Positions 9,217 to 59,588 of a DNA stretch of 64,000 bases are shown piece by piece. Location of the stretch: the NCBI RefSeq assembly GCF_036227605.1, contig NZ_CP109487.1, forward strand, positions 2,914,001 to 2,978,000. Direction: 5' to 3'. Source of the stretch: Streptomyces sp. NBC_01439 (GTDB lineage: Bacteria > Actinomycetota > Actinomycetes > Streptomycetales > Streptomycetaceae). A model generated the notes under the pieces. It did no database searches, had not been told where the DNA came from, and saw only the letters and a list, made by a program, of their open reading frames with translations. How positions within the stretch are numbered: the first letter of the stretch is position 1; every line of letters starts with the position of its first letter. Made by a program: the position numbers and the translations under genes.

Positions 9217-9639
9217 ATGTCCCTCAAGCACTTCACCACCGCCCTGGCCGCCATCGGCGGCGCGTTCATCCTGTACGTCGGGCTCAGCTACCTGCTCGCA
9301 CCGCAGGCGACCGCCGCCGACTTCGGGCTACCGACCTGGCCGCAGCACGACGGCGCCGCCTTCCTCTCCGTCAAGGGCGTGCGCGACGTCGCGACCGGCC
9401 TGGTCATCCTCGCGCTCCTCCTCACGGGGCAGCGCCGGGCGCTCGGCTGGGCCATGGCCGCGATCGTCTTCGTCCCCGCCGGCGACATGGTGATCGTCCT
9501 CGCGGGCGGTGGACCCGCGGCTCAGGCCTACGGGGTCCACGGCGCCACCGCCCTCGCCGTCGCCCTGACCGCGGGCCTCCTACTGCGCGAGCGTCCGGCC
9601 CCTGCCGTCCCGGCCGCCGCCGAGCCGGCCCGGACCTGA
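9217..9639 (+). CDS. DUF4267-type small membrane protein
   Basis: This 140-residue hydrophobic protein has about four membrane segments (roughly residues 10-29, 50-72, 78-97 and 103-122) and a Pro/Ala-rich cytoplasmic tail. The arrangement, with AADFGLP and FLSVKGVRDVATGL in the first loop, fits the DUF4267 family, whose function is unknown to me. It starts at ATG 9217 behind GAGACGGAGA, 53 bp after the hemerythrin gene. It is probably cotranscribed with its neighbours. A single CTTCCAAG element, matching the upstream repeats, occurs at 9194-9201. No enzymatic motif is visible. Confidence 0.75.
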   Translation: MSLKHFTTALAAIGGAFILYVGLSYLLAPQATAADFGLPTWPQHDGAAFLSVKGVRDVATGLVILALLLTGQRRALGWAMAAIVFVPAGDMVIVLAGGGPAAQAYGVHGATALAVALTAGLLLRERPAPAVPAAAEPART

Positions 9640-9698
9640 CCACCCGCCCTCCCTCCTCCCCCTCCCTCACCAGCTCCCCTCTCCCAGGAGAAGACGAC

Positions 9699-10193
9699 AT
9701 GTCCCTGATCGTGCCTTCCTTCGACGAAACGGTGATCGTGCGCTCGGCCAAGGCCGAGACGATCGGCGCTGCCCCGACGACCATCCAGCTCCTCGCCGAC
9801 AGCAGTTCCACGGGCGGCGCCCTGTCGACCCAGCGGGTGAGCCTGCTGGACGGCGCCAACGGGGCTGCGCCCCACCACCACTCCCGGTCCGCCGAGCTCT
9901 TCTACCTGCTCGACGGCACCGCGCAGCTCCTGTCGGGCGACCAGGTGGTGACCGCGGAACGCGGTGACCTCGTCATCGTGCCGCCCGGCCTCGATCACGC
10001 GTTCGCCGCCGCGCCCGGTGAGAACGCCGACATCCTCATCGTGATCACGCCGGGCATCGAGCGGTTCGAGTACTTCCGCCACCTGGAACGGATCGCCTAC
10101 GGGAAAGTGCCTCCGGAGTCCCTGCTGGACGTCCAAGAGCTCTACGACACCTACTTCACCCGCAGTGAGGCGTGGGACACGGTCCGGGCATGA
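9699..10193 (+). CDS. cupin-domain protein
   Basis: The 164-residue protein is a single cupin. Cupin motif 1 is visible as HHHSRSAELFYLLDG (H59-H61, E66), and motif 2 ends in GDLVIVPPGLDHAF (H100). These residues form a likely mononuclear metal site in a small beta-barrel. The C-terminal 60 residues, with GIERFEYFRHLERI, resemble quercetinase-like single cupins. Its substrate is unknown. A strong ribosome site AGGAGAAG precedes ATG 9699, 59 bp after the DUF4267 gene. Its association with a hemerythrin and a membrane protein suggests a redox or small-molecule defence role, but this is inference. Confidence 0.82.
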   Translation: MSLIVPSFDETVIVRSAKAETIGAAPTTIQLLADSSSTGGALSTQRVSLLDGANGAAPHHHSRSAELFYLLDGTAQLLSGDQVVTAERGDLVIVPPGLDHAFAAAPGENADILIVITPGIERFEYFRHLERIAYGKVPPESLLDVQELYDTYFTRSEAWDTVRA

Positions 10194-10265
10194 CGGGAGT
10201 GGGGTACCCGACAAGCCGGGCGCAAGCATTCCGCTCGTGCCCGTGCCGACCTACCGTTGCTGCCC

Positions 10266-11882: not shown

Positions 11883-12580
11883 ACGAGACCCCGATCCACG
11901 TATTGGTCGTCGACGACGACATGCGTGTTGCCCGGATCAACGCGGCGTACGTGGCAAAGGTTCCCGGATTCCTGGTGACGGCTCAGGCTCATTCAGCCGC
12001 CGAGGCCCTGGAGTTCCTCGCCTCGCATCCGGTGGACCTGGTCCTGCTGGACCACTACCTCCCCGACGAGAACGGCCTGGACCTCGTTCGGCGGCTGCGC
12101 CAGCTCGGCCACCGCACCGATGTGATCATGGTCACCGCTGCCCGCGACCTCGCCACCATGCAGGCCGCCATGCGCCTCGGCGCCCTGCAATACCTGGTCA
12201 AGCCCTTCACCTTCGCCGGACTGCGAAGCCGGCTGGAGGCGTACGGGGCGCTGCGCCGCACCCTGGAGACGGGCGGTGAGGCCGAACAGGCCGAGGTGGA
12301 CCGGATCTTCGGTGCCCTCGCCGCCGCGGGATCCCCGAACGAGCTCCCCAAGGGCCATTCCGCCACCACCGCGGAGCTCGTCCGCCAGGTGCTGCGGTCC
12401 GCCGAAGGTCCCCTGTCCACCCAGCAGATCGCCGACCGCGCGGGCATCAGCCGGCAGACCGCCCAGCGCTACCTCAAGCTCCTCGAACGCACCGCGCGGG
12501 TCAGCCTCGCCCTGCGCTACGGCGAGACCGGCCGTCCGGAACACCGCTACGCCTGGCTCCCGTCGGAGGGGCCGGCCTGA
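11879..12580 (+). CDS. CitB/DcuR-type response regulator
   Basis: The 233-residue protein has a receiver domain with acidic pocket VVDDD (11-14), phospho-acceptor D58 in LVLLDHYLPDENG, and K108 in LVKPFTF. A C-terminal helix-turn-helix follows: STQQIADRAGISRQTAQRYL, about 165-190. This two-part layout is typical of CitB/DcuR regulators. Translation starts at a GTG whose last two bases form part of the kinase stop (GTGA overlap), with GGAGG upstream, so the two proteins are translationally coupled. A plausible target is the symporter operon that ends 68 bp away on the other strand. I saw no operator that proves it. Confidence 0.9.
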   Translation: MNETPIHVLVVDDDMRVARINAAYVAKVPGFLVTAQAHSAAEALEFLASHPVDLVLLDHYLPDENGLDLVRRLRQLGHRTDVIMVTAARDLATMQAAMRLGALQYLVKPFTFAGLRSRLEAYGALRRTLETGGEAEQAEVDRIFGALAAAGSPNELPKGHSATTAELVRQVLRSAEGPLSTQQIADRAGISRQTAQRYLKLLERTARVSLALRYGETGRPEHRYAWLPSEGPA

Positions 12581-12647
12581 CGGCGACCGGCCTTCCGACC
12601 GACCGCCCAGCCGACCGGCCGCTCCGCCCCTCGGCCCCCTCGGCCCC

Positions 12648-14240
12648 TCAGACCGCTCCGGCTCCGGTCAGGGAGCGGACCTCCGTCTCCGCGTGCTTCG
12701 CCTCGTCCGCTTCCTCTCCCGAGGTGACGGTGCCCAGCCAGCCCGCCAGGAAGCCCAGCGGGATCGAGACGATCCCCGGGTTCTGGAGCGGGAAATACTG
12801 GAAGTCCACTCCGGGGAAGAGGGAGTCGGCGCTGCCCGACACCACCGGCGAGACCAGTACCAGGAGCACCGCCGGAATCAGACCGCCGTACACCGACCAA
12901 ACGGCTCCGCGCGTGGTGAAGCCGCGCCAGAAGAGCGAGTACAGCAGCACCGGCAGATTCGCCGAAGCCGCCACCGCGAAGGCCAGCCCCACCAGGAACG
13001 CCACGTTGAGGTCTTGGGCGAGCAGCCCGAGGGCGATCGCGACCGCCCCGATGCCGACGGCCGCGCCCCGGGCCACCGCGACCTCGCTGCGCTGCCGGGC
13101 GTGCCGGCGCTTGAGGGAGGCGTACAGGTCGTGTGCCACGGAGGCCGAGGAGGCCAGGGTGATGCCGGCGACCACGGCCAGGATAGTGGCGAAGGCGATG
13201 GCGGCGACGAAGGCGAACAGCACCGCGCCCCCGGTGGAGTCGGCGCCCCCGCCGAGGAAGGCCGCCAGCAGCGGAACGGCCGTGTTCCCCGAGGCGTTGG
13301 AGGCCCGTACCTCGTCCGGTCCCACCAGCGCGGCCGCCCCGAAGCCGAGCACGATGGTCATCAGGTAGAACCCGCCGATCAGCGCGATCGCCCACACCAC
13401 CGAGCGGCGGGCCGACCGCGCGGTGGGCACGGTGTAGAACCGCGACAGGATGTGCGGCAGCCCGGCGGTCCCGAGGACCAGCGCGAGGCCGAGGCTCATG
13501 AAGTCGATGCGGGCGGTCCAGTCCCCGCCGTACTTGAGGCCGGGGCCCAGGAAGGCCCGTCCGTGCCCGCTGCGGTCGGCTGCGCTGGTGAGCAACTGGT
13601 CGAAGTTCCCGTGGAAGCGCAGCAGCACGAGCACGGTCAGGGTGATCGCGCCGCCCATCAGCAGCACGGCCTTGACGATCTGGATCCAGGTGGTGGCCCG
13701 CATCCCGCCGAAGGACACGTAGACCACCATCAGGGCGCCCACGCCCACCACGGTGAGGGTGCGGGCTACGGCGCTCGAGTTCCCCAGCAGCAGGCCGACC
13801 AGACTGCCCGCGCCGACCATCTGCGCGATGAGGTAGAGGACGGAGACGACGACCGAGGAGATGCCGGCCGCGATCCGGACCGGACGTTCGCTCATCCGGG
13901 CGGCGACCACGTCGGCAAGGGTGAAGCGCCCGCAGTTGCGAACGAGTTCGGCGACGAGGAACAGCACCACGAGCCAGGCCACGAGGAAGCCCACCGAATA
14001 CAGCAGCCCGTCGTAGCCGAAGAGGGCGATCAGGCCGGAAATGCCGAGGAACGAGGCCGCGGACATGTAGTCGCCCGCGATGGCGAATCCGTTCTCCATC
14101 GGGGAGAACAATCGCCCGCCCGCGTAGAACTCCTCGGCCGAACCGTGCCGGTTCCGGCTGACCCAGGTGGTGATGCCGAGCGTCACCGCGATGAAGAGGC
14201 TGAACAGGATCAGCGCGAGGGTCTGGTGCTCGGTGGTCAC
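12648..14240 (-). CDS. solute:sodium symporter of the acetate/pyruvate (ActP/MctC) type
   Basis: This 530-residue, roughly 13-helix membrane protein carries SSS-family signatures: SAEEFYAGGRLFSPMENGFA, YMSAASFLGISGLIALFGYDG, and GTAGLPHILSRFYTVPTAR in the mid region. ActP and MctC relatives import acetate, pyruvate or propionate with a cation. It starts at GTG 14240, overlapping the DUF485 stop by GTGA, with GAGGAGG located inside the DUF485 coding end. This two-gene pairing is standard for this transporter class. Its end faces the sensor kinase/response regulator pair. Together with two citrate synthases 8 kb away, the region looks tuned to organic-acid use, though they are separate units. 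Confidence 0.9.
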   Translation of the reverse strand: MTTEHQTLALILFSLFIAVTLGITTWVSRNRHGSAEEFYAGGRLFSPMENGFAIAGDYMSAASFLGISGLIALFGYDGLLYSVGFLVAWLVVLFLVAELVRNCGRFTLADVVAARMSERPVRIAAGISSVVVSVLYLIAQMVGAGSLVGLLLGNSSAVARTLTVVGVGALMVVYVSFGGMRATTWIQIVKAVLLMGGAITLTVLVLLRFHGNFDQLLTSAADRSGHGRAFLGPGLKYGGDWTARIDFMSLGLALVLGTAGLPHILSRFYTVPTARSARRSVVWAIALIGGFYLMTIVLGFGAAALVGPDEVRASNASGNTAVPLLAAFLGGGADSTGGAVLFAFVAAIAFATILAVVAGITLASSASVAHDLYASLKRRHARQRSEVAVARGAAVGIGAVAIALGLLAQDLNVAFLVGLAFAVAASANLPVLLYSLFWRGFTTRGAVWSVYGGLIPAVLLVLVSPVVSGSADSLFPGVDFQYFPLQNPGIVSIPLGFLAGWLGTVTSGEEADEAKHAETEVRSLTGAGAV

Positions 14241-14725
14241 CGGCCGGCCCTCCTCGCCCGGGTCCGCTCGGCGCCGTGCTCCTGCTCGAAGACGGTCCAG
14301 CGCAGATCGAGCGCGGCCCGGTCCCTGCGCAGTCGCGCGTGCCGGGCATAGGCCCAGGTCAGCAGGAAGGTGCTGAGGAACTGGCCGAGCCCCGCCAGCA
14401 TGGCCACGTTGACCGCGCCCACCACGGGCCGGGCCATCAGGCCGGGCGCGGCAGTGGCGGCGACCACGTAGGCGACGTACCAGAGGAAGAATCCGGCGGT
14501 GGCGGGGACGACGAACCTGCGGTAGCGGGTGCGCACCTCCTGGAAGGCGGCGCTGCGCTGCACTTCGAGGTAGATGTCGGATGCTCCGGGCGCGGGGCGT
14601 CCACCCACGGGAACCGGGGCCGGCTGGGACGTTTCCTCACCCTCGCCCCACCCGACGGCCAGCGCGTCGTACCAGGGGTCGTCCAGCCGGATCGTTCCGG
14701 TATCACGACCTTCGTGCTTGTCCAC
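14237..14725 (-). CDS. DUF485 membrane protein, partner of the symporter
   Basis: The 162-residue protein has a polar N-terminus of about 60 residues, then VQRSAAFQEVRTRYRRFVVPATAGFFLWYVAYV and LGQFLSTFLLTWAYARHAR in sequence. Those two segments are the two DUF485 membrane helices (about residues 72-95 and 108-130). A basic tail ends the protein. DUF485 proteins are encoded immediately before acetate-type symporters and are thought to support them. Start GTG 14725 is preceded by AAGGAGAG. It is translationally coupled to the symporter through a 4-bp overlap. The N-terminal extension is longer than the roughly 100 residues usual for the family. Confidence 0.88.
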   Translation of the reverse strand: MDKHEGRDTGTIRLDDPWYDALAVGWGEGEETSQPAPVPVGGRPAPGASDIYLEVQRSAAFQEVRTRYRRFVVPATAGFFLWYVAYVVAATAAPGLMARPVVGAVNVAMLAGLGQFLSTFLLTWAYARHARLRRDRAALDLRWTVFEQEHGAERTRARRAGR

Positions 14726-48077: not shown

Positions 48078-50048
48078 CTACTTGCCGTCAGTCTGAGCGG
48101 CGGCGTCGATCGCAGCGAGCGAGCGGCGGACCTGGTTGCGGTCCGTGGTGTACCAGAAGTCCGGCAGCGTGGCCCGCAGGAAGCTCCCGTACCGGGCCGT
48201 CGCCAGCCGGGGGTCGAGGACCGCGACGACGCCCCGGTCACCCGAAGCCCGTACGAGGCGGCCGGCACCCTGCGCCATCAGCAGCGCGGCGTGCGTGGCC
48301 GCAACGGCCATGAAACCGTTGCCACCGTGCTCCTCGACCGACTTCTGCCGGGCGCTCATCAGCGGGTCGTCGGGGCGCGGGAAGGGGATCCGGTCCATGA
48401 CCACGAGCTGACAGCTGGGCCCGGGCACGTCCACGCCCTGCCAGAGCGAGAGCGTCCCGAACAGGCAGGTCTTCGGATCGGCGGCGAAGGACTTGATCAG
48501 CTCGCCGAGGGTCTCCTCGCCCTGGAGCAGGATCGGATGGTCGAGCCGGCCGCGCAGCTCTTCGGCGGCCGCCTTGGCGCCGCGCATGGAGGAGAAGAGA
48601 CCGAGGGTGCGTCCACCGGCCGCTTCGATCAGCTCGGCGAGCTCGTCCATCATGTCGCCGCGGGTCCCCTCGCGGCCCGGCGTGGCCAGGTGCTTGGCGA
48701 CGTAGAGGATCCCCTGCTTCGGGTAGTCGAAGGGCGAGCCGACGTCGAGGCCGCGCCACACGGGTACGTCGTCGCCCTCGACCCCCTCGGGGGACAGGCC
48801 CAGCGAGGCCGCAACCCCGTTGAAGTCGCCGCCCAGCTTGAGGGTGGCGGAGGTCAGGACCACGGAGCGGTCCTCGAACAGCTTCTCGCGCAGCAGGCCG
48901 GACACCGACAGGGGGGCGACGCGGAGGGTGGCGCCGAAGCGGTCGTGGCGCTCGTACCAGACCACGTCGTACTCGGAGCCGTTGGTGATCCGCTCCGCCA
49001 CGCCGTGGATGCTCTCCACCGCGGCCAGCGCCTGCTTGCGCACCGCGTCCTCGTCGTGGACGGACTTGTCCCGGGTCGCGCCGATCGCCGAGATCACGTT
49101 GCGCGAGGCGTCCCGCAGGGACATCAGCGCGTAGCCGAGGTCCTCCGGGATCTGCTCCAGCCGACCCGGGAGCGCCAGCTCCATGACCCGCTCGAAGGTC
49201 TCGGAGGCGGTCTGCAGGGAGTCCGCGGTCTTCTCGTCGACCAGCTTGGCGGCACGCTTCACGGCCCGGTTGACCTGGCCCGGGGTGAGTTCGCCGGTGG
49301 CGACCCCGGTCACCCGGGAGACCAGCTCGTGGGCCTCGTCCACGATCAGCACCTCGTGCTGCGGCAGCACGGGAGCGCCTTCGATGGCGTCGATGGCGAG
49401 GAGGGCGTGGTTGGTGACGACCACGTCCGCGAGCTTGGCCCGCTCACGGGCAGCCTCCGCGAAGCACTCGGCGCCGTACGCGCACTTCGTGGCGCCCAGG
49501 CACTCGCGGGAGGAGACGGAGATCTGAGACCAGGCCTTGTCCGAAACACCAGGGGTCAGGTCGTCGCGGTCGCCGGTCTCGGTCTCGTCCGCCCAGTCGC
49601 GCATGCGCAGCAGGTCCTGGCCGAGCTTGCTGGTGGGCGCGGCCGCCTCGAACTGGTCGAAGAGTCCGTCCTCTTCGTCCTGCGGAGCGCCCTCGTGCAG
49701 GCGGTGCAGGCACAGGTAGTTGGACCGGCCCTTGAGCATGGCGAACTGAGGGCGGCGGCGCAGCTGCGGATGCAGTGCCTCCACGGTCCGGGGCAGATCG
49801 CGCTCGACGAGCTGCCGCTGGAGGGCGAGGGTTGCCGTGGCGACCACCACGCGCTCGCCGTGCGCGAGGGCCGGCACCAGATAGCCGAGCGACTTTCCGG
49901 TGCCGGTACCGGCCTGGATCAGCCGGTGGGAGTTGTCGTCGATCGCTTCGGCGACGGCTTCGGCCATGGCCACCTGGCCGGGGCGCTCCGTGCCGCCGAC
50001 GGCGGAGACGGCGGCGTGCAGCAGGTCGGGGAGGGAGGGCTTCGTCAT
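48078..50048 (-). CDS. DinG/XPD-type ATP-dependent DNA helicase with iron-sulphur cluster
   Basis: This 656-residue superfamily 2 helicase shows Walker A QAGTGTGKSLGYL (45-57) and DEAH (237-240) in VLIVDEAHELV. The iron-sulphur cysteines C113, C183, C189 and C195 surround the NYLCLHRL and SSRECLGATKCAYGAECF segments. Motif VI-like QGAGRLVRAS is near the end. This is the DinG/XPD/Rad3 layout, used to unwind damaged or structured DNA and R-loops. ATG 50048 follows GGGAGTG. It faces lexA across the terminator. I found no SOS box in its 52-bp upstream spacer, so SOS induction of this gene is not supported. Confidence 0.92.
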   Translation of the reverse strand: MTKPSLPDLLHAAVSAVGGTERPGQVAMAEAVAEAIDDNSHRLIQAGTGTGKSLGYLVPALAHGERVVVATATLALQRQLVERDLPRTVEALHPQLRRRPQFAMLKGRSNYLCLHRLHEGAPQDEEDGLFDQFEAAAPTSKLGQDLLRMRDWADETETGDRDDLTPGVSDKAWSQISVSSRECLGATKCAYGAECFAEAARERAKLADVVVTNHALLAIDAIEGAPVLPQHEVLIVDEAHELVSRVTGVATGELTPGQVNRAVKRAAKLVDEKTADSLQTASETFERVMELALPGRLEQIPEDLGYALMSLRDASRNVISAIGATRDKSVHDEDAVRKQALAAVESIHGVAERITNGSEYDVVWYERHDRFGATLRVAPLSVSGLLREKLFEDRSVVLTSATLKLGGDFNGVAASLGLSPEGVEGDDVPVWRGLDVGSPFDYPKQGILYVAKHLATPGREGTRGDMMDELAELIEAAGGRTLGLFSSMRGAKAAAEELRGRLDHPILLQGEETLGELIKSFAADPKTCLFGTLSLWQGVDVPGPSCQLVVMDRIPFPRPDDPLMSARQKSVEEHGGNGFMAVAATHAALLMAQGAGRLVRASGDRGVVAVLDPRLATARYGSFLRATLPDFWYTTDRNQVRRSLAAIDAAAQTDGK

Positions 50049-50100
50049 AGCACTCCCAACCCTACGGGGCCGCACTGACAGCGAGCGCACCGGCGAGCAA

Positions 50101-51993
50101 TCATGGCCGGTACAAGGGGTTGGGCACGGTGCCGTGCTGCACGGCGTGCGGACGGTCGGGCCGGTCGCGGTAGCCGTCCTCGTAGAGCCGGTTCCGGTTC
50201 AGGCAGAGCCGTCCGATGCGTTCGCCCAGCAGGTCGAAGAGCTCGTAGCGGTCTTTGAGCTCCGGGAAGCGGGCCTGGTGGCGGAGGATCTCCGCCCGTA
50301 CGAGGGACCAGAACGCGCGCTCCGGGACGCCCAGGCCGTCCTCGCACAGGGCCGAGAGGTAGCGGAAGACGCCGACGAACAGACCGGAGTGGATGAACTG
50401 GGGCAGGAAGTCGGCGGGCTCGGTGAGCAGGACCGCTCGGACCTCGTCGGGCAGGGACTCGAGCTCGGGCAGCGGTTCGTCGGTGATGTTGACGTCGTCC
50501 ACGAAGTCCTTGACCGCGAGCCGGACCGGGACGTCGCACTCGTCGAAGATCACGATGGCGTTCTCGCCGTGCGGGGAGAAAACGGTGCCGTAGCGGTAGA
50601 GGAAGTGGAGCAGTGGGGGCAGGAGGGCGGCGAAGAGGCGCTGGAGCCAGACGGTGGGGGTCAGTCCGGACCGGGCCACGAGTTCGGTGGTGAAGGACCG
50701 GCCGCGCGGGTCGGTGTGGAGGAGGGAGGCGAGCGTACGGGCGCGCTCGCCGGGTGCCAGCAGGCCGGTAAGGGGCTCGCGCCAGATCGCGCCGAGGAGC
50801 TCCTTGTACTGGTACGGGACCTCGGGGAGCGCGTCGTAGACCGGGTGGCGGACGGTGACGGAGGCGACCTCGCCGAGCAGGACGACCCGGCACTCGTCGC
50901 GGAGGAAGGGGTCGCCGTCGCGGAGGGAGTGGATCCAGGCGGTGACGGCCGGGGCTGCGAGCGCGAGGTCGTTGGGCAGTCCGCGCCAGACCATGGTGTT
51001 GAAGACGGAGAGCGGGAGTTTGACGCTGTGCCGGTCGGGCCTACTGAGGTTGAGGAACGTACGGACGGACTGCTGCGGGAGACGCACGTCGGGATCGGCG
51101 GGGAGCGGGACCAGGGCGCCGGAGGCGAGCGCCGGGGCGAAGAGGGGGAGCACGACCTCGTCCCACTGCCAGGGGTGGATCGGGAGGTAGAGGTAGTGGA
51201 GCGGGTCGAGGCCGCGGTCGCGCAGGGACTGGTCGAAGGCGGCCCGGGTGACGGGGTCGAGCTCGGCGGAGTAGAGGTGGGCGGGGTCCTCCAGGCCGGC
51301 GGTCCCGCGGTAGGCGGCGAGCGAGGTGTGGGCGGCGAGCCAGGGCAACCGCTGGCGGGTGCGCGCCTCGGGGGCCCATGCGGCGGTGTCGGAGGCGGAG
51401 AGTCCGATCCGGCCCTTGTTGGGGACGAGCCAGGGGTGGCCGGTCTGGTGGCCTTCGAGGGCGGCGTAGTCGAGGTCGGCGAGGACGTCGGCGGTGAGTG
51501 CGGTGTGGTCGAGTCGGGCGTCGGCGGTGAGGGTGGCGCTGAGCTCGCGGACGAGGTGACCGAGGGTGGGTCCGTCGAGCCCCAGGAGGTTCCGGGCCCG
51601 GATGAGGAAGGCGTACGGATCCTCGAGTGCGGTCGGGCTCCCGAGGGCGCCCGGCACGATCGGTGCTGTCGGTGCGGTCGGCGAGGGTGGCGGTGGGGTC
51701 AGGATGATCGTGTCCGGGGTGACGTGCCAACTGCCGTACGAGCGGCGCCGGGCGCGGAAGCCGAGGCTGCTGCCGTCGTCGAGGGTCAGGGTCCAGGCGT
51801 CCCCTGCGGTGGCCGGTGCGGGGACGGGGCGGATGATCTCCTCGTAGGCGAACTCGCCGAGCATCTTGGCAAGCAGCCGGCGGGCGGCGAGGCCCCAGGT
51901 CCCGCGGTTGAGTTCGGGCGGCGTGCAGAGGTCCCGGGGCAACGGCGGCCCGGCGGGGTCGGCAGCGTGGGGGGCTGCGGGGAAGTTCGGCAC
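50101..51993 (-). CDS. IucA/IucC-family NRPS-independent siderophore synthetase (second enzyme)
   Basis: The 630-residue NIS synthetase condenses a carboxylate, usually citrate or its derivative, with an amine using ATP. Motifs are HPWLVPNKGRIGLS, LPIHPWQWDEVVLPLF, QSVRTFLNLSRPDRHSVKLP, TMVWRGLP and YGTVFSPHGENAIVIFDE. The C-terminal half is the helical FhuF-like region. No membrane segment is seen. The GTG start at 51993 follows GAGGAG. It is the last gene of a leftward operon with an acyltransferase, another IucA/IucC enzyme and a diaminobutyrate-type transaminase. In aerobactin-like pathways the second synthetase adds the second amine arm, so this is a likely role here. It resembles type C enzymes more than type A, but this is by eye. 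Confidence 0.88.
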   Translation of the reverse strand: MPNFPAAPHAADPAGPPLPRDLCTPPELNRGTWGLAARRLLAKMLGEFAYEEIIRPVPAPATAGDAWTLTLDDGSSLGFRARRRSYGSWHVTPDTIILTPPPPSPTAPTAPIVPGALGSPTALEDPYAFLIRARNLLGLDGPTLGHLVRELSATLTADARLDHTALTADVLADLDYAALEGHQTGHPWLVPNKGRIGLSASDTAAWAPEARTRQRLPWLAAHTSLAAYRGTAGLEDPAHLYSAELDPVTRAAFDQSLRDRGLDPLHYLYLPIHPWQWDEVVLPLFAPALASGALVPLPADPDVRLPQQSVRTFLNLSRPDRHSVKLPLSVFNTMVWRGLPNDLALAAPAVTAWIHSLRDGDPFLRDECRVVLLGEVASVTVRHPVYDALPEVPYQYKELLGAIWREPLTGLLAPGERARTLASLLHTDPRGRSFTTELVARSGLTPTVWLQRLFAALLPPLLHFLYRYGTVFSPHGENAIVIFDECDVPVRLAVKDFVDDVNITDEPLPELESLPDEVRAVLLTEPADFLPQFIHSGLFVGVFRYLSALCEDGLGVPERAFWSLVRAEILRHQARFPELKDRYELFDLLGERIGRLCLNRNRLYEDGYRDRPDRPHAVQHGTVPNPLYRP

Positions 51994-52092
51994 GTGACTC
52001 CTCGGAGGTCGGGAACTTTGCTTCGTTACGCAGAGTTATCGAGGGGAGAGGTGCGAAGCTGCCGACGACGGTCGGGGTTTGCGGGGCGGCAC

Positions 52093-52806
52093 TCAGAGGA
52101 GATTGCGCAGCACCCGCTCCCGGATCATCAGGGCGGCCCGCTTCTCGGGAAGGTCGATTTCCGCGGAGCAGCGGAAACCGGAGTTCAGGAAGGCTGATAC
52201 GGAGGGGGTGTTGCGGATGTCCGGTTCCGCGACGACGCGTGTGCAGCGGGGGCGGTTGCCGAGGACCAGGTCGGCGACGGCACGCAGCAGAGCCGTTCCC
52301 AGTCCGCGGCCGCGGTTCGTGCCGTCTCCGATGAGCAGGTGGATACCCGTGTCGTGGGGGCGCGCCGGGTAGTGCCCGGAGAGCGGGTCAAGGTCGGCTC
52401 GGTAGATCTCCCAGTAGCTCATCGGCGTGCCGTCGAGGAGTCCGAGGCAGGGGATGCTGCCGCCGTCCCCGTCGAGCTGGGCCCGCAGGTGGGCATCAGT
52501 GACCGCGGCGGGGCCCGCGAGCTCCCAGTAGGCGGACACTTCGGGATCGTTCATCCAGCCGGTGAGTAGCTCCAGGTCACGGCCGGGCCGCACGGGTTCG
52601 AGGCGGAAGGCTCCGGCCGGTGTGGTGACGCTGCCCCAGATGGCGGGGGAATCGAGCAGGTCGGCCTCGGCGAGCAGGGGCAACAGCTCCGCATTGAGGC
52701 GTTGTGCGCGCCTTCCGCGGGCGACTTCGACGACGCCGGTGGTGGTGCGTGTGTCGTGGCCGGGTCGCGCGGCTGGAGCTTGGGCTGAAGTGTCGGTGGA
52801 GGGCAT
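52093..52806 (-). CDS. IucB/RhbD-like siderophore N-acyltransferase (GNAT)
   Basis: This 237-residue protein carries GAFRLEPVRPGRDLELLTGWMNDPEVSAYWEL, SYWEIYRADLDPL, THE-like HDTGIHLLIGDGTNRGRGLG and VVAEPDIRNTPSVSAFLNSGF, in pieces of the siderophore acetyltransferase fold (Acetyltransf_8). In aerobactin and rhizobactin routes this enzyme acylates an N-hydroxylated amine. No hydroxylase gene lies in this cluster, so its substrate may be a free amine or be supplied in trans. ATG 52806 follows GGAGAAGAG; the frame runs 12 codons further upstream and overlaps the neighbour, but that start (TTG) is less likely. It starts 33 bp after the first IucA/IucC stop. Confidence 0.85.
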   Translation of the reverse strand: MPSTDTSAQAPAARPGHDTRTTTGVVEVARGRRAQRLNAELLPLLAEADLLDSPAIWGSVTTPAGAFRLEPVRPGRDLELLTGWMNDPEVSAYWELAGPAAVTDAHLRAQLDGDGGSIPCLGLLDGTPMSYWEIYRADLDPLSGHYPARPHDTGIHLLIGDGTNRGRGLGTALLRAVADLVLGNRPRCTRVVAEPDIRNTPSVSAFLNSGFRCSAEIDLPEKRAALMIRERVLRNLL

Positions 52807-52838
52807 CGGGGGCTCTTCTCCGCGTCGGCGCCGACGCG

Positions 52839-55118
52839 TCAATCGTGAAGGGGGTTGGTGATGGTGACGTAGACGGACTGCGTGTCGACGGGGCCGACCA
52901 GCTCGTCGAGGCCGCCCAGGCGGGTGAGCAGATTGGCCTTGCAGCGCAGGGTGGGCGAGTCGAGCAGCCGTGCCGGGAGCGGGCCGAGGCCGGCGGCCTT
53001 GGCGAGGAAGCGGCGGAAGGCGGCGAGGAGGACCCGTTCGTCTGCGAGCCGCTGGGATCCGAAGGCGCCGATGAGGCCCAGCACGTTGTTGATGCCGAGG
53101 TAGTAGGCGAAGCGTTCGTCGGCGACGGCGTCGGAGACGAAGGTGTCACTGGCGCTGCCGATGCCGGGGAGCCGGTGCTCCAGTTCCGCGCGGCGGGATT
53201 CGCGGAAGTAGTAGCCCTGGTTGTCGCGGTAGCGGCCGCCGATCGGCCAGCCGGCTGGGTCGAGGAGCACCAGGGTGTTCTGTTGGTGCGCTTCGAGGGC
53301 GATACCGGCGAGCGCATCGAAGGCGAGGACCGGCAGCACCACGTGGTCGAGGTAGCGCAGGAACCACTCGGCGGCGACGGCGGACGTGGTGTGGCCGGTG
53401 GCGATGGCGAGTCCGGTGATGAGTTCGGCGAGGCGGGAGCTCATGGTGGTCCGGCCGGGCCACGGGCGGGGGGCGGTGAGTGCGGCGATGCAGACCGGGT
53501 CGTCGCCCGAACGGAAGGGGTTGTGGCGCAGCAGGGCGTCAAGTCCGGGCACGGGGGTTCCGTCCGGCGCGTCCACGGCGACCCAGGCGGGGTCGCGGAC
53601 GATGTCGAAGGCGGGGTGGGACGCCTGCCACTGCTCGGCGAGGCCGGTGCGGAGCAGCCGGTGTACCTCGACACCGCGGTGGAGTTCCTTGCGGAGGTTC
53701 TCGCGGCGGGAGTTGGTGATGCGCAGGCCCAGGGAGAGCTTGAGCATCGCGGGGGCGCCCGGTCGGTGGACGGTGCGCACGGAGGATGTGGGGTACCAGG
53801 GCTCGCCGTGTGGGCCGAGGTCGTACAGAAGTCCCGCGTCACGGAGGGCGGAGACGGCGGGGCGCTCGAGCAGGTCACGGGCCTGCCAGGGGTGTAGGGG
53901 AAGGGGGGTGGTGCCGCCCGGCAGCGGGAGACCGGGGGCGAGTCGGCCGAGGAGCTGTGGCGCGGAGACGGGGCGGCCGCTCTCGGTCCAGGCCGATTCG
54001 CTCGCGAGGGCCGCGGGGTCGATCGCGAACCAGTGCAGGGGGAAGGAGCCGTGGAGTTCGGGTGAGTAGCGGCGTACCTCGGCCTCGGAAAGCCCTTCAC
54101 GGCTCTTCGGGTCCGGCTGGAGGGGGTGACCGAGGAGGAGCGCCTGCTCGGCGGTGAGGAAACGGTCCCCGCCCAGGGGGGCCGGGGCGGTGGGGCGTTC
54201 CCGCCGGTCGGCGATGAATTCGGCGGTGCGGCGCACGGAGTCGGCGACCCGGCCGACGAGGTCGGCGGCGCCTCGGCCACCGCTCGTGCCTTCTCGGGCG
54301 ATGAGCGCGGCGATGGTGACGGCGTCGAGGGAGGGTGCGGCGGCGGTCGTGCCTTCGAGTCGGACCGCACCGAACCGGTGCCAGCCGGCGTGGGACCAGT
54401 GGCGGACGGGAACGAGCAGGGCGGTACCGGAAGCGGGAAGGGGGATGCGCAGGGGGGTTCCGGCGGGGCCGTCGGGGCGGCCGAGACCGGATTCGCGGAC
54501 CCAGCAGCGGAGCAGGTTCTCCACCGCCGCGGCCTCGGCGGCGACGGCCGGGTCGGGGTGGTTGAGCAGGTCGGGCAGTGTGGTCGGCTCCAGCCGTAGG
54601 GGGCTCGTCCATCCGGAACGGGGCCGGGGTGTGCCGTCCTTCTGCCGCGGCACCGTGGCCGTTGCCCCGGCGTCGGTCCCGCTGGCGGCCGCCACCGGGG
54701 GAAGCTGCTCGGCCGGTGCTCCGGGGGCTCCGGCTCCGGGGGTTCCGGGTGCGCCCGTCGGGCGTGGCTTCGGGTGCTCGGCCGTGGCTCCGTCGGCGTG
54801 GGAAGGCGTGCCGGCCGGGGGCGGGGTCGGTGCGTCCTCGGCGGGCACGGGCCGGGCCGGCGGGGTGACAGCGGACCCCGAGCCCTGTACCTCGTGGACG
54901 TCGGGCCGCGGCGGCGTCGGGGACGGCGGCTCCGCGACCTCCCTCAGCGGCGCAGAGGTGCCGGGCGACGCTGACGTCTGTCCCGGGGCGACGGCCTCCT
55001 CGTGGTCCGGGAGCGGATTCGGCAGCGCCGGGGCCGGCCCCGGCGGCAGCGGGGCGGGCCGGTCGGGAGACAGTGGCTGGTTCTCCGTGATGGGGGTGGA
55101 ATGGTGCGGATCGGGCAT
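52839..55118 (-). CDS. IucA/IucC-family siderophore synthetase (first enzyme), with long disordered N-terminus
   Basis: The 759-residue protein has about 165 residues of Pro/Ala/Gly-rich, probably disordered sequence at the N-terminus. The NIS synthetase domain follows with GHPLQPDPKSREGLSEAEV, PLHPWQARDLLE, YPTSSVRTVHRPGAPAMLKL, SLGLRITNSRRENLRK, ALEAHQQNTLVLLD and RDNQGYYFRES. These are the ATP and carboxylate sites of the IucA-like enzymes. The expected first step is amide formation between citrate and a diamine. ATG 55118 follows GAGGA and lies 21 bp after the transaminase stop. The low-complexity extension is not typical of the family and may be locally acquired, an assembly surface or an artefact of GC-rich drift. 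Confidence 0.88.
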   Translation of the reverse strand: MPDPHHSTPITENQPLSPDRPAPLPPGPAPALPNPLPDHEEAVAPGQTSASPGTSAPLREVAEPPSPTPPRPDVHEVQGSGSAVTPPARPVPAEDAPTPPPAGTPSHADGATAEHPKPRPTGAPGTPGAGAPGAPAEQLPPVAAASGTDAGATATVPRQKDGTPRPRSGWTSPLRLEPTTLPDLLNHPDPAVAAEAAAVENLLRCWVRESGLGRPDGPAGTPLRIPLPASGTALLVPVRHWSHAGWHRFGAVRLEGTTAAAPSLDAVTIAALIAREGTSGGRGAADLVGRVADSVRRTAEFIADRRERPTAPAPLGGDRFLTAEQALLLGHPLQPDPKSREGLSEAEVRRYSPELHGSFPLHWFAIDPAALASESAWTESGRPVSAPQLLGRLAPGLPLPGGTTPLPLHPWQARDLLERPAVSALRDAGLLYDLGPHGEPWYPTSSVRTVHRPGAPAMLKLSLGLRITNSRRENLRKELHRGVEVHRLLRTGLAEQWQASHPAFDIVRDPAWVAVDAPDGTPVPGLDALLRHNPFRSGDDPVCIAALTAPRPWPGRTTMSSRLAELITGLAIATGHTTSAVAAEWFLRYLDHVVLPVLAFDALAGIALEAHQQNTLVLLDPAGWPIGGRYRDNQGYYFRESRRAELEHRLPGIGSASDTFVSDAVADERFAYYLGINNVLGLIGAFGSQRLADERVLLAAFRRFLAKAAGLGPLPARLLDSPTLRCKANLLTRLGGLDELVGPVDTQSVYVTITNPLHD

Positions 55119-55139
55119 CGCGGGTCCTCGGGGTGCGGG

Positions 55140-56642
55140 TCAGTGGGTCCGACGGGCGGCGGCCGGGATGGCGTCGGCCAGACGGTCGAGGACCGCCGCG
55201 GCCTGCTCGTCGGTCAGGGTCAGCGGGGGAAGGAGGCGCACCACGGCGCCGTGGCGGCCGCCGAGTTCGACGATCAGGCCGCGGTCCAGGCACTCCTGGC
55301 GGACGGCAGCGGCGAGGGACGGCGCGGCGGCCCCGGTGTCGGGGTCGACGAGTTCGATGCCGATCATCAGGCCCCGGCCCCGTACCTCTCCGATGCACGG
55401 ATGGCCGCAGGCCAGGCCGTGCAGGGCGGCCAGCATCCGTTCCCCCAGGGCGGCGGCGCGCTCGGCGAGCCGGTTCTCGCGGACGAAGGTGAGCGTGGCG
55501 GTACCGGCGGCCATGGCGAGCTGGTTGCCGCGGAAGGTGCCCGCGTGCGCGCCGGGGGCCCAGACGTCCAGGGCGGCCCGATACACGATCACCGCGAGCG
55601 GCAGGCTGCCACCGATCGCCTTGGAGAGGACCATGACGTCGGGCACCACCCCGGCGTGGTCGACTCCCCAGAAGGCACCGGTCCGGCCGACGCCCGTCTG
55701 CACCTCGTCGGCGATCAGCGGGATCCCCCGCGCCGCGGTGATCTCGCGCATCCGGCGCAGCCAACCGTCCGGGGCGGGGATCACCCCGCCCTCGCCCTGC
55801 ACGGGCTCGACGATCATGCCTGCGGGGGCGGACACTCCGCCCTTCGGGTCGTCCAGCAGGTTCTCCGTCCAGCGCGCGGAGAGTTCGGCGCCTTCTGGGC
55901 CACCGACTCCGAACGGGCAGCGCAGGTCCTGCGGGTACGGCAGCCGGGTCACCCGCACGCCGGGGGCGCCGCCCGAAGCGTCCAGGGCCCCGGCGGTCAT
56001 GCCGTGGTAGGCCCCGGTGAAGGCGAGCAGCCCGGGGCGTCCGGTCGCGGTGCGCACCAGTGTGAGTGCGGCCTCCACGGCGTCCGTTCCGGCCGGACCG
56101 CAGAACTGGATGCGCGCGTCGGCTGCGAGCGCGGGCGGCAGGTTGGCGAACAGCTCGGTGGTGAAGGCGTCCTTGACCGGGGTCGCGAGGTCCAGCACGT
56201 GCAGCGGGGCCCCCGAGTCGAGGACGCCCCGGATGGCTTCGAGCACCACCGGATGGTTGTGCCCGAGGGCGAGCGTGCCGGCGCCGGAGAGGCAGTCGAG
56301 GTAGCGCCGCCCGTCGGCGCCCTCGATGGTGAGCCCGCGGGCCCGCACGGGGACGATGGGCAGCGAGCGCGCGTACGTCCGGGCGGCGGACTCCCGCTGT
56401 GCCTGTCTGCGCAGGATGTTCTCAGGAGCGACGGAACCCCCCGGCCCCTCGCTCACGCCCGAGCGGCCCGAGCGACCCGAACCGCCCGGGCTGCCGGCTC
56501 CGTCCGGAACCGGTCCCCGGCTTCCCTGCGGCGGCACTTGAGGTGGGATCTCTGTCGCGGCCGCCGCCGCGGCCGGCTCGGTGGCAGCCACGAGTGTCGG
56601 TCCTCCCGCACTGATTGCTCTTCCGGATTGCGTCTCGAACAT
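55140..56642 (-). CDS. diaminobutyrate-2-oxoglutarate-type class III aminotransferase
   Basis: The 500-residue PLP enzyme has a disordered N-terminus of about 75 residues, then the DABA-transaminase pattern RQAQRESAARTYARSLPIVP and CLSGAGTLALGHNHPVVLEA, with LHVLDLATPVKDAF. The PLP Lys is in VMVLSKAIGGSLPLAV. DEVQTGVGRTGAFWG supplies the cofactor aspartate. Such enzymes convert aspartate semialdehyde to L-2,4-diaminobutyrate with glutamate as donor, as in rhizobactin-like siderophore and ectoine pathways. No ectoine synthase genes are adjacent, so the siderophore role is preferred. ATG 56642 follows GGGGGAGC. It is the first gene of the NIS operon, divergent from a lipoprotein protease. Confidence 0.88.
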   Translation of the reverse strand: MFETQSGRAISAGGPTLVAATEPAAAAAATEIPPQVPPQGSRGPVPDGAGSPGGSGRSGRSGVSEGPGGSVAPENILRRQAQRESAARTYARSLPIVPVRARGLTIEGADGRRYLDCLSGAGTLALGHNHPVVLEAIRGVLDSGAPLHVLDLATPVKDAFTTELFANLPPALAADARIQFCGPAGTDAVEAALTLVRTATGRPGLLAFTGAYHGMTAGALDASGGAPGVRVTRLPYPQDLRCPFGVGGPEGAELSARWTENLLDDPKGGVSAPAGMIVEPVQGEGGVIPAPDGWLRRMREITAARGIPLIADEVQTGVGRTGAFWGVDHAGVVPDVMVLSKAIGGSLPLAVIVYRAALDVWAPGAHAGTFRGNQLAMAAGTATLTFVRENRLAERAAALGERMLAALHGLACGHPCIGEVRGRGLMIGIELVDPDTGAAAPSLAAAVRQECLDRGLIVELGGRHGAVVRLLPPLTLTDEQAAAVLDRLADAIPAAARRTH

Positions 56643-56707
56643 GAACGCTGCTCCCCCATCCCCCGTACGTACCAACGACGGTGACGGCGAGGGATCACGG
56701 GTTGACT

Positions 56708-56831: not shown

Positions 56832-58001
56832 ATGCGATCGAACCGACCGGTCACCGCGATTCTGTGCGCGGCCACGCTCGCGCTGACCGCGGCTGCCTGC
56901 GGCCCCGGCGACGAGGAGGCCGGCGGCGACGCCAAGCCGACCGTGGCGGCGAGCCTGCCGGGCCAGGACGGGATCAAGATCCCGGACCAGCTCAAGGACA
57001 AGCTCAAGGAACACGGTATAGACCTGGAGAAGTGGAAGGGGGGTGAGTGGAAGAACTGGAAGAAGGAGGACTGGCTCCGCGAGGCGGGCGACTACATCAA
57101 CCCGGTCATCGAGGGCCTGTGGGACCCGGACCGCATGCGTGACGCCGAGCAGCCGCAGCGTCCGTCCGTCGACCCCGACGCGGGCAAGGACCAGGGCGTC
57201 ACCGACCCGACCCCGGCACCGGTGGCGGCCAAGCAGGCCAACCCGCCCTACCACACGAGCGTTCCGTCGTCCGGCAAGGTGTTCTTCGACGGCCCCGAGG
57301 GCTCGATGGTCTGCTCGGCGACCGTGATCAAGGACCCGGCCCACCCCGGCAAGTCGAACATGGTCTGGACCGCGGGCCACTGCGTCCACGCGGGCAAGGC
57401 CGGCGGCTGGTACCGCAACATCGCCTTCGTCCCGTCCTACAACAACACGGGCAAGCCGTCGGCACAGCTCAAGGGCGCGCCCCGCGAGACGGTGGCCCCG
57501 TTCGGCGTGTGGTGGAGCGACTGGGCGCAGACCTCCGACCAGTGGATCGCGAGCGGCGGTCCGACCGGCGGCGCGGGTGCCCCCTACGACTTCGCGGTGC
57601 TCCACGTGGCGCCCGAGAAGGGCAAGACCAAGTCCCTGGAAGAGACCGTCGGTTCGGCGCTCCCGGTGGACTTCAACGCGCAGGCCGTGCCGAAGGTCGC
57701 GAGCATCACGGCGACGGGCTACCCGGCGGCGGCTCCGTTCGACGGCCAGCGCGCCTTCCAGTGCACGGACCGGCCGGGCCGGCTGTCCCTGAACGCGAAC
57801 GACCCGGTGATGTACCGCATCGGCTGCACCATGACCGGCGGTTCCTCCGGTGGCGGCTGGGTCACGGCGGGCGCCGACGGCAAGCCGGCGCTGGTGTCGA
57901 ACACCTCGATAGGCCCGGCCAAGGCGGGCTGGCTGGCCGGGCCCCGGCTGGGGCCGGAGGCGAAGGGCATTTTCGACGCCGTCAGCGCCAAGTTCAAGTA
58001 G
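56832..58001 (+). CDS. lipoprotein serine protease (trypsin-like peptidase)
   Basis: The 389-residue preprotein has a signal sequence and lipobox LTAAAC with the acylated Cys at about residue 23. A polar, Lys/Glu/Trp-rich spacer of about 110 residues (DKLKEHGIDLEKWKGGEWKN) precedes the protease. The catalytic residues are MVWTAGHCVHA (His), PYDFAVLHVA (Asp) and IGCTMTGGSSGGGWV (Ser). It would be anchored at the outer face of the membrane. ATG 56832 follows CAGGGGGA. It diverges from the siderophore operon; the 189-bp spacer shows small inverted repeats but no recognised element. The long terminator at 58025 ends it. Confidence 0.85.
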   Translation: MRSNRPVTAILCAATLALTAAACGPGDEEAGGDAKPTVAASLPGQDGIKIPDQLKDKLKEHGIDLEKWKGGEWKNWKKEDWLREAGDYINPVIEGLWDPDRMRDAEQPQRPSVDPDAGKDQGVTDPTPAPVAAKQANPPYHTSVPSSGKVFFDGPEGSMVCSATVIKDPAHPGKSNMVWTAGHCVHAGKAGGWYRNIAFVPSYNNTGKPSAQLKGAPRETVAPFGVWWSDWAQTSDQWIASGGPTGGAGAPYDFAVLHVAPEKGKTKSLEETVGSALPVDFNAQAVPKVASITATGYPAAAPFDGQRAFQCTDRPGRLSLNANDPVMYRIGCTMTGGSSGGGWVTAGADGKPALVSNTSIGPAKAGWLAGPRLGPEAKGIFDAVSAKFK

Positions 58002-58082: not shown

Positions 58083-59588
58083 TCAGCGCTTCGCGAGCGC
58101 GTACGGCGCCAGGTCCGCCGCCAGTTCCTGGTGGACCCGCGCCTTGAGCAGGGTGCCGTCCGGGGTGTGCTCCTCGGAGATCACCTCGCCCTCGGCGTGC
58201 GCCTTGGCGACCAGCGAGCCGCGCGTGTACGGCACCAGGGCCTCCACCTCGACCTCGGGCCGCGGCAGCTCGGAGTCGATGAGCGCGAGGAGTTCCTCGA
58301 TGCCCATGCCCGTGCGCGCCGAGACGGCGATGGAGTGCCGTTCGATCCGCAGCAGCCGCTGCAGGACCAGCGGGTCCGCGGCGTCCGCCTTGTTGATCAC
58401 GACGATCTCGGGCACGTTCACCGCGCCGACCTCACGGATCACCTCGCGCACCGCCGCCAGCTGTTCCTCCGGCGCCGGGTGCGAGCCGTCCACGATGTGC
58501 AGGATGAGGTCGGAGTCGCCGACCTCCTCCATCGTGGAGCGGAAGGCCTCGACGAGGTGGTGGGGCAGGTGCCGGACGAAGCCGACGGTGTCGGCCAGGG
58601 TGTAGACCCGGCCGCTCGGCGTCTCGGCCCGGCGCACGGTCGGGTCGAGGGTGGCGAACAGTGCGTTCTCCACCAGCACGCCCGCGCCCGTGAGGCGGTT
58701 GAGCAGCGAGGACTTGCCCGCGTTGGTGTAACCGGCGATGGCGACCGAGGGCACCTTGTTGCGGCGCCGTTCCTGCCGCTTGATGTCACGGCCGGTCTTC
58801 ATCTCCGCGATCTCCCGGCGCATCTTCGCCATCTTCTCGCGGATCCGACGTCGGTCGGTCTCGATCTTGGTCTCACCGGGGCCGCGCGTGGCCATGCCGC
58901 CACCGCCGCCGCCACCCATCTGCCGGGACAGCGAGGCACCCCAGCCGCGCAGTCGCGGCAGCATGTACTGCATCTGCGCGAGGGCGACCTGCGCCTTGCC
59001 CTCTCGGGACTTGGCGTGCTGGGCGAAGATGTCGAGGATCAGCGCGGTCCGGTCGACCACCTTCACCTTGACGACGTCCTCAAGGGCGATGAGCTGGCCG
59101 GGGCTGAGCTCACCGTCGCACACGACGGTGTCCGCGCCGCTCTCCATGACGATGTCACGCAGCTCGCGCGCCTTGCCCGAGCCGATGAAGGTGGCCGGGT
59201 CCGGCTTGTCACGGCGCTGGATCACACCGTCGAGTACGAGAGCACCCGCCGTCTCGGCGAGGGCGGCGAGCTCCGCGAGGGAGTTCTCCGCGTCGTTCAC
59301 CGTGCCGGAGGTCCAGACGCCGACCAGGACGACGCGCTCCAGGCGCAGCTGCCGGTACTCGACCTCGGTGACGTCTTCGAGCTCGGTGGAGAGGCCGACC
59401 ACGCGGCGCAGGGCCGCGCGCTCCGAGCGTTCGAACTGCTCGCCGTCCCGGTCTCCGTCGATCTCGTGGCTCCAGGCGACGTCCTCTTCCATCAGGGCAT
59501 CGGCCCGAAGGCTCTCGGTGAAGCTCTGCGAGTCCCGCACGTCCTGGGCGTCCCGCGCGTCCTGGGAAGGGGAAGAAGAGGAGGTCAT
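58083..59588 (-). CDS. hflX: GTPase HflX
   Basis: This 501-residue ribosome-associated GTPase splits stalled or heat-damaged ribosomes. It shows the Gly-rich segment MGGGGGGGMATRGPGETK and ETDRRRIREKMAKM at the HflX-specific N-domain, G1 GYTNAGKSSLLN, G3 DTVGFVRHLPHHLVEAFRST and G4 NKAD. An acidic N-terminal extension of about 60 residues is present. ATG 59588 follows AAGGATCC. It is monocistronic; the terminator at 58025 separates it from the protease. The G-domain positions are about residues 285-440. It is close to the usual length for actinobacterial HflX. Confidence 0.96.
   Translation of the reverse strand: MTSSSSPSQDARDAQDVRDSQSFTESLRADALMEEDVAWSHEIDGDRDGEQFERSERAALRRVVGLSTELEDVTEVEYRQLRLERVVLVGVWTSGTVNDAENSLAELAALAETAGALVLDGVIQRRDKPDPATFIGSGKARELRDIVMESGADTVVCDGELSPGQLIALEDVVKVKVVDRTALILDIFAQHAKSREGKAQVALAQMQYMLPRLRGWGASLSRQMGGGGGGGMATRGPGETKIETDRRRIREKMAKMRREIAEMKTGRDIKRQERRRNKVPSVAIAGYTNAGKSSLLNRLTGAGVLVENALFATLDPTVRRAETPSGRVYTLADTVGFVRHLPHHLVEAFRSTMEEVGDSDLILHIVDGSHPAPEEQLAAVREVIREVGAVNVPEIVVINKADAADPLVLQRLLRIERHSIAVSARTGMGIEELLALIDSELPRPEVEVEALVPYTRGSLVAKAHAEGEVISEEHTPDGTLLKARVHQELAADLAPYALAKR

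What the first reader, a model, noticed from the sequence alone, without database searches (positions are those of the whole stretch)
50101..56642. Compact NIS siderophore locus lacking decarboxylase, hydroxylase and transporter
Four genes run leftward: a diaminobutyrate-type aminotransferase, an IucA/IucC synthetase, an IucB/RhbD-like acyltransferase and a second IucA/IucC synthetase. The rhizobactin/schizokinen route needs two more enzymes, a DABA decarboxylase and a lysine/ornithine-type N-monooxygenase. Neither is in the window and neither is replaced by a recognisable homologue in these genes. No transporter, receptor or reductase is beside them. So either the missing steps come from elsewhere, or this locus makes a citrate-diaminobutyrate amide or an N-acyl (non-hydroxamate) carboxylate chelator. 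The IucA-like enzyme and the aminotransferase both carry long disordered N-termini, unlike typical family members. I recall a similar arrangement in other Streptomyces chromosomes but no established product.
Basis: partly seen in the sequence, partly recalled or inferred. Interest (0 to 1): 0.8.

Follow-up and report, generated by a model that had tools for sequence, protein, structure and literature searches.

The report
Split siderophore pathway in Streptomyces
Four genes here match four steps of a known six-step route to an iron-scavenging molecule (a likely schizokinen-type product), and the two enzymes that seemed to be missing are encoded by a gene pair about 4 million bases away, an arrangement seen across the Streptomyces genomes sampled while relatives keep all six genes together.

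Summary
The four leftward genes are real: A aminotransferase, C IucA-like synthetase, D acyltransferase, F IucC-like synthetase. The enzymes reported missing are in the genome: a diaminobutyrate-type decarboxylase (B) and a diamine-type N-monooxygenase (E), overlapping by 4 bases, 3.96 Mb away between pepN and 5'-nucleotidase/pyk genes. Together they match the six-gene rhizobactin-type operon A-B-C-D-E-F.

In Catenulispora all six stand in that order beside dinG-lexA-nrdR-nrdJ, the genes that flank the window locus; in G045 and G047 they stand between hflX and dinG, exactly this site. In 20 Streptomyces genomes read at both loci, the site holds C and D (A in 19, F in 11), and the pepN site holds E (B in 18). 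Distances were 3.5-5.2 Mb in 32 of 32 genomes measured. Presence of the two loci largely coincides. Both genomes that lost B beside E carry a second, linked cluster.

Best reading: a schizokinen-type pathway divided over two loci, neither with the usual iron box. Schizokinen has been tentatively reported from Streptomyces by LC-MS. Product, shared control and transport are untested.

The parts
55140..56591 (-).
   Evidence: TIGR00709 475.2 bits, cut-off 401.6; PF00202; start from a GGAGGA site
52839..55118 (-). C: IucA-like NIS synthetase (RhbC-like), 759 aa with a variable N-terminal extension of roughly 170-200 residues
   Evidence: PF04183 and PF06276; solved IucA 1.3e-49 from residue 200; 43% to the S. 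meliloti homologue
52093..52806 (-). D: GNAT acyltransferase (IucB/RhbD-like)
   Evidence: PF13523 164.1 bits
50101..51993 (-). F: IucC/DesD-like NIS synthetase (RhbF-like)
   Evidence: PF04183 and PF06276; solved DesD 8.1e-96
56672..56699 (-). Conserved promoter-like element upstream of A: CGTGAT-N16-CGTTGG, 81 bases before GTG 56591
   Evidence: Score of at least 10 of 12 upstream of A in 17 of 22, upstream of B in 3 of 21, in 23 of 300 random stretches. I set the last base to G (published BldN consensus: A) after seeing the sequences, and orthologues are not independent
48078..50090 (-). dinG-type helicase: flank shared with the six-gene operon of relatives, not part of the pathway
   Evidence: PF13307; synteny
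58083..59588 (-). hflX: flank on the other side, shared with G044, G045, G047 and G058; not part of the pathway
   Evidence: PF13167 and PF16360; synteny

Best explanation
These four genes likely make a schizokinen-type dihydroxamate-citrate siderophore together with a decarboxylase-monooxygenase gene pair that lies 3.96 Mb away in the same chromosome. Predicted flow: A makes 2,4-diaminobutyrate; B (elsewhere) decarboxylates it to 1,3-diaminopropane; E (elsewhere) N-hydroxylates it; D acylates the hydroxylamine; C joins one unit to citrate; F joins the second. Shown: families, gene sets and order, synteny with intact operons, co-occurrence, and no canonical iron box at either locus. Inferred: substrates, product, expression and transport. 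Whether the Streptomyces B-E pair was moved out of the operon or replaced lost copies is not resolved.
For: B and E are a 2-gene pair with a 4-base overlap. B's best NCBIfam model is RhbB; E is closest to diamine N-hydroxylases. All six homologues stand in order in S. meliloti and Halobacterium. Intact six-gene operons lie at the same chromosomal site in related genomes. 20 Streptomyces genomes read at both loci: C and D 20, A 19, F 11; E 20, B 18. 37 of 37 chosen strong-E genomes have C; 5 of the 9 without E lack C. The two genomes lacking B beside E both have B in a linked A-B-C-E-F cluster. Seven of 13 weak-E genomes carry a second C, against 4 of 37 strong-E (Fisher p 0.003). Schizokinen tentatively reported from Streptomyces.
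Against: No biochemistry. B and E score below the curated cut-offs of their best models. Four drafts have C without E (G103, G120, G216, G255), and so has G008; G014 and G032 have E without C or F; six weak-E genomes without a second C are unresolved. F is absent at the site in 9 of 20 genomes. No shared upstream element was established. In the E tree the split E groups with E of A-B-E-C-D clusters, not with in-place operon E, and the backbone is weak. Counts are not corrected for relatedness.
Confidence: 0.83

Rival explanations
1. The four genes form a self-sufficient short pathway that makes a citrate-diaminobutyrate amide or a non-hydroxamate carboxylate chelator.
For: The locus alone lacks B and E. 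Some drafts have C but no E hit at 1e-100 (G103, G120, G216, G255).
Against: B and E homologues exist in the genome as a dedicated pair, and relatives carry B and E within the operon at this site.
Confidence: 0.05
2. The four genes borrow DesA and DesB of the desferrioxamine locus for decarboxylation and hydroxylation.
For: DesA and DesB homologues are in the genome (L029).
Against: A closer B-E pair exists: DesA is 36% identical to B and DesB 39% to E. The des locus carries iron boxes, and the window locus does not.
Confidence: 0.05
3. The B-E pair serves a different pathway, and its match to the missing steps is coincidence.
For: E is kept without C or F in two drafts, G014 and G032. In the E tree the pair is not sister to in-place operon genes.
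Against: B and E are exactly the two missing steps. Loss of B or E is concentrated in genomes with a second cluster. I recognised no other biosynthetic gene among those called around the pair.
Confidence: 0.07

Closest known systems
Rhizobactin 1021-type operon (rhbA-F) of Sinorhizobium meliloti (L065; gene names recalled, the record has no annotation there)
   Same: Six homologues in the order A-B-C-D-E-F, 39-54% identity
   Different: One operon on a plasmid; here B and E are a separate pair 3.96 Mb away. The lipid-adding step known for rhizobactin (recalled) was not sought here
Schizokinen-type cluster of Halobacterium salinarum pNRC200 (L066; product assignment for haloarchaea recalled)
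   Same: Same six genes in the same order, 39-51% identity
   Different: Contiguous
Six-gene operon of Catenulispora (L121 named; L051, L113-L118) and related genomes G044, G045, G047
   Same: Same genes and same chromosomal neighbourhood as the window locus
   Different: Undivided; in Catenulispora only the dinG-nrdJ side is shared, and hflX was not found in the stretch read beyond A
SCO5799-5801 of Streptomyces coelicolor (listed as putative siderophore cluster)
   Same: Aminotransferase plus siderophore genes by the published descriptions. S. violaceoruber L192 has prot-A-C-D-dinG at this site
   Different: Three genes listed, no F; S. coelicolor itself was not in my sequence set
Desferrioxamine locus desABCD (own genome, L029)
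   Same: Related decarboxylase, hydroxylase, acyltransferase and one synthetase
   Different: Contiguous, with iron boxes; cadaverine-based (recalled); one synthetase, no aminotransferase

Membership tests
Schizokinen/rhizobactin-type NIS pathway | Homologues of all six enzymes A-F in the genome | tested here: met
Schizokinen/rhizobactin-type NIS pathway | The six genes in one cluster | tested here: not met
   A-C-D-F in the window, B-E 3.96 Mb away
Schizokinen/rhizobactin-type NIS pathway | E acts on a diamine (1,3-diaminopropane) | not testable with these tools
   Sequence only: closest to putrescine and desferrioxamine-pathway hydroxylases at about 1e-86 to 1e-91, against 3e-48 for MbtG
Schizokinen/rhizobactin-type NIS pathway | Product is a dihydroxamate citrate | not testable with these tools
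   Tentative LC-MS reports in other strains only
Iron-box (DmdR1-type) siderophore locus | Canonical iron box upstream | tested here: not met
   None with up to 3 mismatches in window or L030; two sites in the des locus as control; best site 7-10 mismatches of 19 in 40 upstream regions
BldN-dependent promoter (A gene) | CGTAAC-N16-CGTTGA upstream | tested here: inconclusive
   Window site CGTGAT-N16-CGTTGG matches 9 of the 12 published bases (consensus in PMC2375139, passage); conserved upstream of A, not enriched upstream of B
Desferrioxamine (des) pathway | Single DesD synthetase with DesA and DesB, no aminotransferase | tested here: not met
   Two synthetases plus an aminotransferase here; des is a separate locus

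The most novel reading that the evidence does not exclude
Streptomyces carries a genus-wide, stably divided siderophore pathway that has left iron-box control. Its synthetase part is read from a BldN-like developmental promoter, so it makes a schizokinen-type chelator for aerial growth and sporulation rather than for general iron starvation, alongside desferrioxamine. In the many species without F, another synthetase such as DesD finishes the molecule, or a mono-substituted citrate is the product.
Probability: 0.25. Interest if true: 0.75.

Novelty: new variant of a known kind. Interest (0 to 1): 0.58.

Why it matters
It gives a long-listed orphan 'siderophore synthetase' type of locus in Streptomyces (SCO5799-5801 in S. 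coelicolor) candidate missing enzymes and a testable product class. It also shows how cluster-based mining can misread such a locus: a paper on S. tricolor describes a similar gene set as a catechol-type pathway (PMC9268400, passages read). Siderophore genes are a standard example of clustering, so a division found throughout a genus sample, with the undivided order still present at the same site in relatives, is a good case for asking how operons come apart and why the parts stay apart.

Tried and rejected
Iron-box search at both loci: none, with a working control. Search for a shared upstream motif: A and B regions each have a conserved element, not convincingly the same one. First E and B trees with all own-genome paralogues had long branches and a weak backbone. 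I built them again without the paralogues, which still did not settle relocation against replacement. G012, a close relative with E and F in distant pieces, was set aside because a faulty assembly explains it equally well. Literature searches on SCO5799/5800/5801 and on schizokinen with Streptomyces listed no paper whose title or listing pointed to the two-locus arrangement. I read passages only, of ten papers; the other listed papers were not opened. Selection: one search received 60 of the 247 genomes, namely all 9 without E at 1e-100, 14 of the 15 whose best E match was weaker than 1e-180 (13 'weak' plus G008; G012 left out), and 37 single-contig genomes with strong E taken down the list. 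The distance count covers the 32 genomes whose positions I entered. G012 was left out; G073, not entered then, is 4.8 Mb. In a draft of this report I called the second C copies complete clusters before reading them in all the genomes concerned; searches then checked nine of them.
Full report
OBSERVATION. The window is bases 2,914,001-2,978,000 of a single 9.58 Mb contig. Four same-strand genes at 50101-56642 encode an aminotransferase (A), an IucA-like NIS synthetase (C), a GNAT acyltransferase (D) and an IucC/DesD-like NIS synthetase (F). All own-genome decarboxylase and N-hydroxylase matches lie outside the window. The aminotransferase extension is shorter than reported: a GTG start at 56591 behind GGAGGA gives 483 aa. 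The IucA-like extension is real but varies among relatives.

THE MISSING ENZYMES. The own genome has six PF00282 matches and twelve PF13434 matches, eight of them strong. One decarboxylase (B) and one monooxygenase (E) are neighbours at 6.92 Mb and overlap by four bases (L030). They follow a pepN-type aminopeptidase; beyond an ALF-repeat protein come a 5'-nucleotidase-like gene and pyruvate kinase (pepN, 5'-nucleotidase and pyk named by reading the translations). B's best NCBIfam model is the RhbB diaminobutyrate decarboxylase (290.5 bits, under the cut-off of 900). E's is 'putative histamine N-monooxygenase' (381.6 bits, cut-off 700). E's nearest solved relatives are a 'monooxigenase', a putrescine N-hydroxylase and a desferrioxamine-pathway enzyme at 1e-86 to 1e-91; the next is MbtG at 3e-48. 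B's nearest is an entry named diaminobutyrate transaminase and decarboxylase, 6e-69.

THE SIX-GENE SET. Searching with A, C, D, F of the window and B, E of L030 finds all six in the order A-B-C-D-E-F in the S. meliloti plasmid locus (39-54% identity) and in the annotated Halobacterium pNRC200 locus (39-51%). Short blocks, including the two glycine-rich nucleotide-binding motifs of E and the SKA-GG block of A, are shared by our proteins with S. meliloti, Halobacterium and Catenulispora (motif meanings recalled).

SAME SITE, WHOLE OPERON, IN RELATIVES. In G045 and G047 the six genes stand between hflX and dinG, the genes that flank the window locus, and in G045 lexA, nrdR and nrdJ follow as in the window. 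In G044 they stand beside hflX, and the contig ends in F. In G038, G041, G043 and G046 they stand beside dinG-lexA-nrdR-nrdJ; beyond A no hflX was found in the 12-20 kb read. Catenulispora pinisilvae (L121) shows A-B-C-D-E-F-dinG-lexA-nrdR-nrdJ, and its C is 93% identical to the query's first row, that of G038. In G058, a more distant relative, B-C-D-E-F stands between hflX and dinG.

STREPTOMYCES. I read both loci in 20 genomes. The first site has C and D in 20 of 20, A in 19 and F in 11; it lies beside dinG in all 20. The second site has E in 20 and B in 18, beside pepN, the 5'-nucleotidase or pyk in all 20. Eight of the nine genomes without F still have both B and E. In 32 of 32 genomes whose positions I entered the loci are 3.53-5.25 Mb apart. 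Among the 80 best named loci (a capped list), 57 have both hflX and dinG and A-C-D: 34 with F and 23 without. Three (Streptomyces sp. NRRL S-350, S. novaecaesareae, NRRL WC-3742; I recall these as Kitasatospora-like, one search lists S. novaecaesareae under Streptomyces) have C-D-E-F between hflX and dinG. L144, L151 and L190 carry A-B-E-C-D clusters without these flanks in the stretch read.

CO-OCCURRENCE. In the 36 same-genus genomes of the first sample, window-type C (at least 63% identity) is in 32 and E (at least 70%) in 34, two of them in pieces (G010, G012); both are in 31. C alone: G008. E alone: G014, G028, G032. Neither: G027. G028 does have F; G014 and G032 have no window-type F. 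Outside the genus, C and E are neighbours in 15 of the 16 genomes with C (one of them, G051, only a fragment of C); the exception is G040. In the larger sample 238 of 247 genomes have an E-type match at 1e-100 (DesB paralogues score weaker). Of 60 genomes then tested for C, all 37 with strong E have it. Of the 9 without E, G027, G113, G148, G150 and G160 lack C, while G103, G120, G216 and G255, drafts of 690-1350 contigs, have it. All 13 with weak E, and G008, have C. Fisher p for C given strong E or no E is 9e-5 (37 of 37 against 4 of 9), and 1e-5 if only genomes of at most 200 contigs are kept (37 of 37 against 0 of 4).

TRANS-SUPPLY. Seven of the 13 weak-E genomes carry a second, 52-55% identical C, against 4 of 37 strong-E genomes (p 0.003). 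I read nine of these eleven second copies and the other two (G067, G110). B and E stand beside C in ten of the eleven; in G153 the contig is 3.7 kb and shows only E, D and C. Both genomes that lack B beside E at the pepN site (G068, G238) have a linked cluster with A, B, C, E and F (L201, L202; no D hit), against 1 of the other 18 with a second C (p 0.016). G068 has also lost A and F at the first site (L076). So the separate B or E appears to be lost mainly where another B and E are present, which is what a working partnership predicts. Six weak-E genomes without a second C (G065, G093, G210, G212, G252, G254) are unexplained. None of these counts is corrected for relatedness.

REGULATION. A canonical iron box occurs twice in the des locus but not in the window or L030. 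The best site in 40 upstream regions has 7-10 mismatches of 19. Upstream of A there is a conserved CGTRAY-N16-(C/G)GTTGG element, and upstream of B a conserved CCCCTTTCGGGT-like element in 19 of 21. The A element resembles the published BldN consensus (PMC2375139, passage); B regions are not enriched for it (3 of 21). A published S. coelicolor array gives log2 values, second against first mycelium at 24, 48 and 72 h, of 0.4, 1.3, 1.8 (SCO5799) and 0.8, 1.8, 1.3 (SCO5801), against 1.1, -3.7, -3.2 for SCO2782 (desA) (PMC3610822 Table 4, passages). That fits expression unlike the iron-box siderophores; it does not prove the promoter type.

HISTORY. The E tree places the split Streptomyces E with E of the A-B-E-C-D clusters (100/100), apart from the in-place E of the three C-D-E-F loci and of Catenulispora; the backbone is weak. 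The B tree groups the split B with B of those clusters and of some linked clusters (100/100). The pair may therefore have replaced lost operon copies rather than moved out of the operon. The divided arrangement itself does not depend on that.

PRODUCT. Schizokinen has been reported from Streptomyces by LC-MS: tentatively in Streptomyces sp. SL03 and putatively in S. mutomycini SL02 (PMC13136089), and in S. anulatus RLA103, where it is assigned to a cluster (PMC11865988); passages read. S. griseus (L173), which I recall as a near relative of S. anulatus, has A-C-D-F at this site. I did not see the gene content of the clusters in those papers.

VERDICT. A known kind of pathway in an unusual divided arrangement found throughout the Streptomyces sample. 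'Lacking decarboxylase and hydroxylase' is true of the locus and not of the genome.

Noticed in passing
L076, L078, L079, L081, L082, L084-L087; 23 of 57 named loci: A large part of Streptomyces lacks the second synthetase F at this site, although eight of the nine genomes read at both loci keep B and E. What finishes the molecule there is open.
   Followed up: partly
L168, L176, L179 (about 9000-14300): C-D-E-F between hflX and dinG with A and B not at the site: a second way of dividing the same operon.
   Followed up: partly
L144, L151, L190: Clusters with the order A-B-E-C-D(-F); L190 (S. boluensis) has a further B-E in front, and L144 a second B before F.
   Followed up: partly
L045, L047, L048, L059, L061, L201, L202, L205, L206, L208: Linked clusters with B, C, E and F (A too except in L206) but no hit for the acyltransferase D. 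L045 and L047 carry an ornithine/DAP-type (PF02784/PF00278) decarboxylase gene, so the product may differ.
   Followed up: partly
L028 10388-13588 (own genome, 0.459 Mb) and L058 (G113): A divergent pair of NIS synthetases, unrelated to des and to this pathway by neighbourhood; product unknown.
   Followed up: no
L053, L054, L055 (G012): In a close relative E lies in two pieces 4.6 Mb apart, most of F is missing from the site with a piece at 6.73 Mb, and A is not beside C: large rearrangement or faulty assembly.
   Followed up: partly
L030 8200-8227: Conserved element with the inverted repeat ACCC-N5-GGGT 62 bases upstream of B; no regulator assigned.
   Followed up: partly
L016, L017 (own genome, 0.607 and 0.614 Mb): Two nearly identical N-monooxygenase genes about 6.5 kb apart.
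   Followed up: no
L057, L060, L070-L073 and others: The protease-like gene next to A (window 56832-58001, no Pfam match) is often present in tandem copies in Streptomyces.
   Followed up: no
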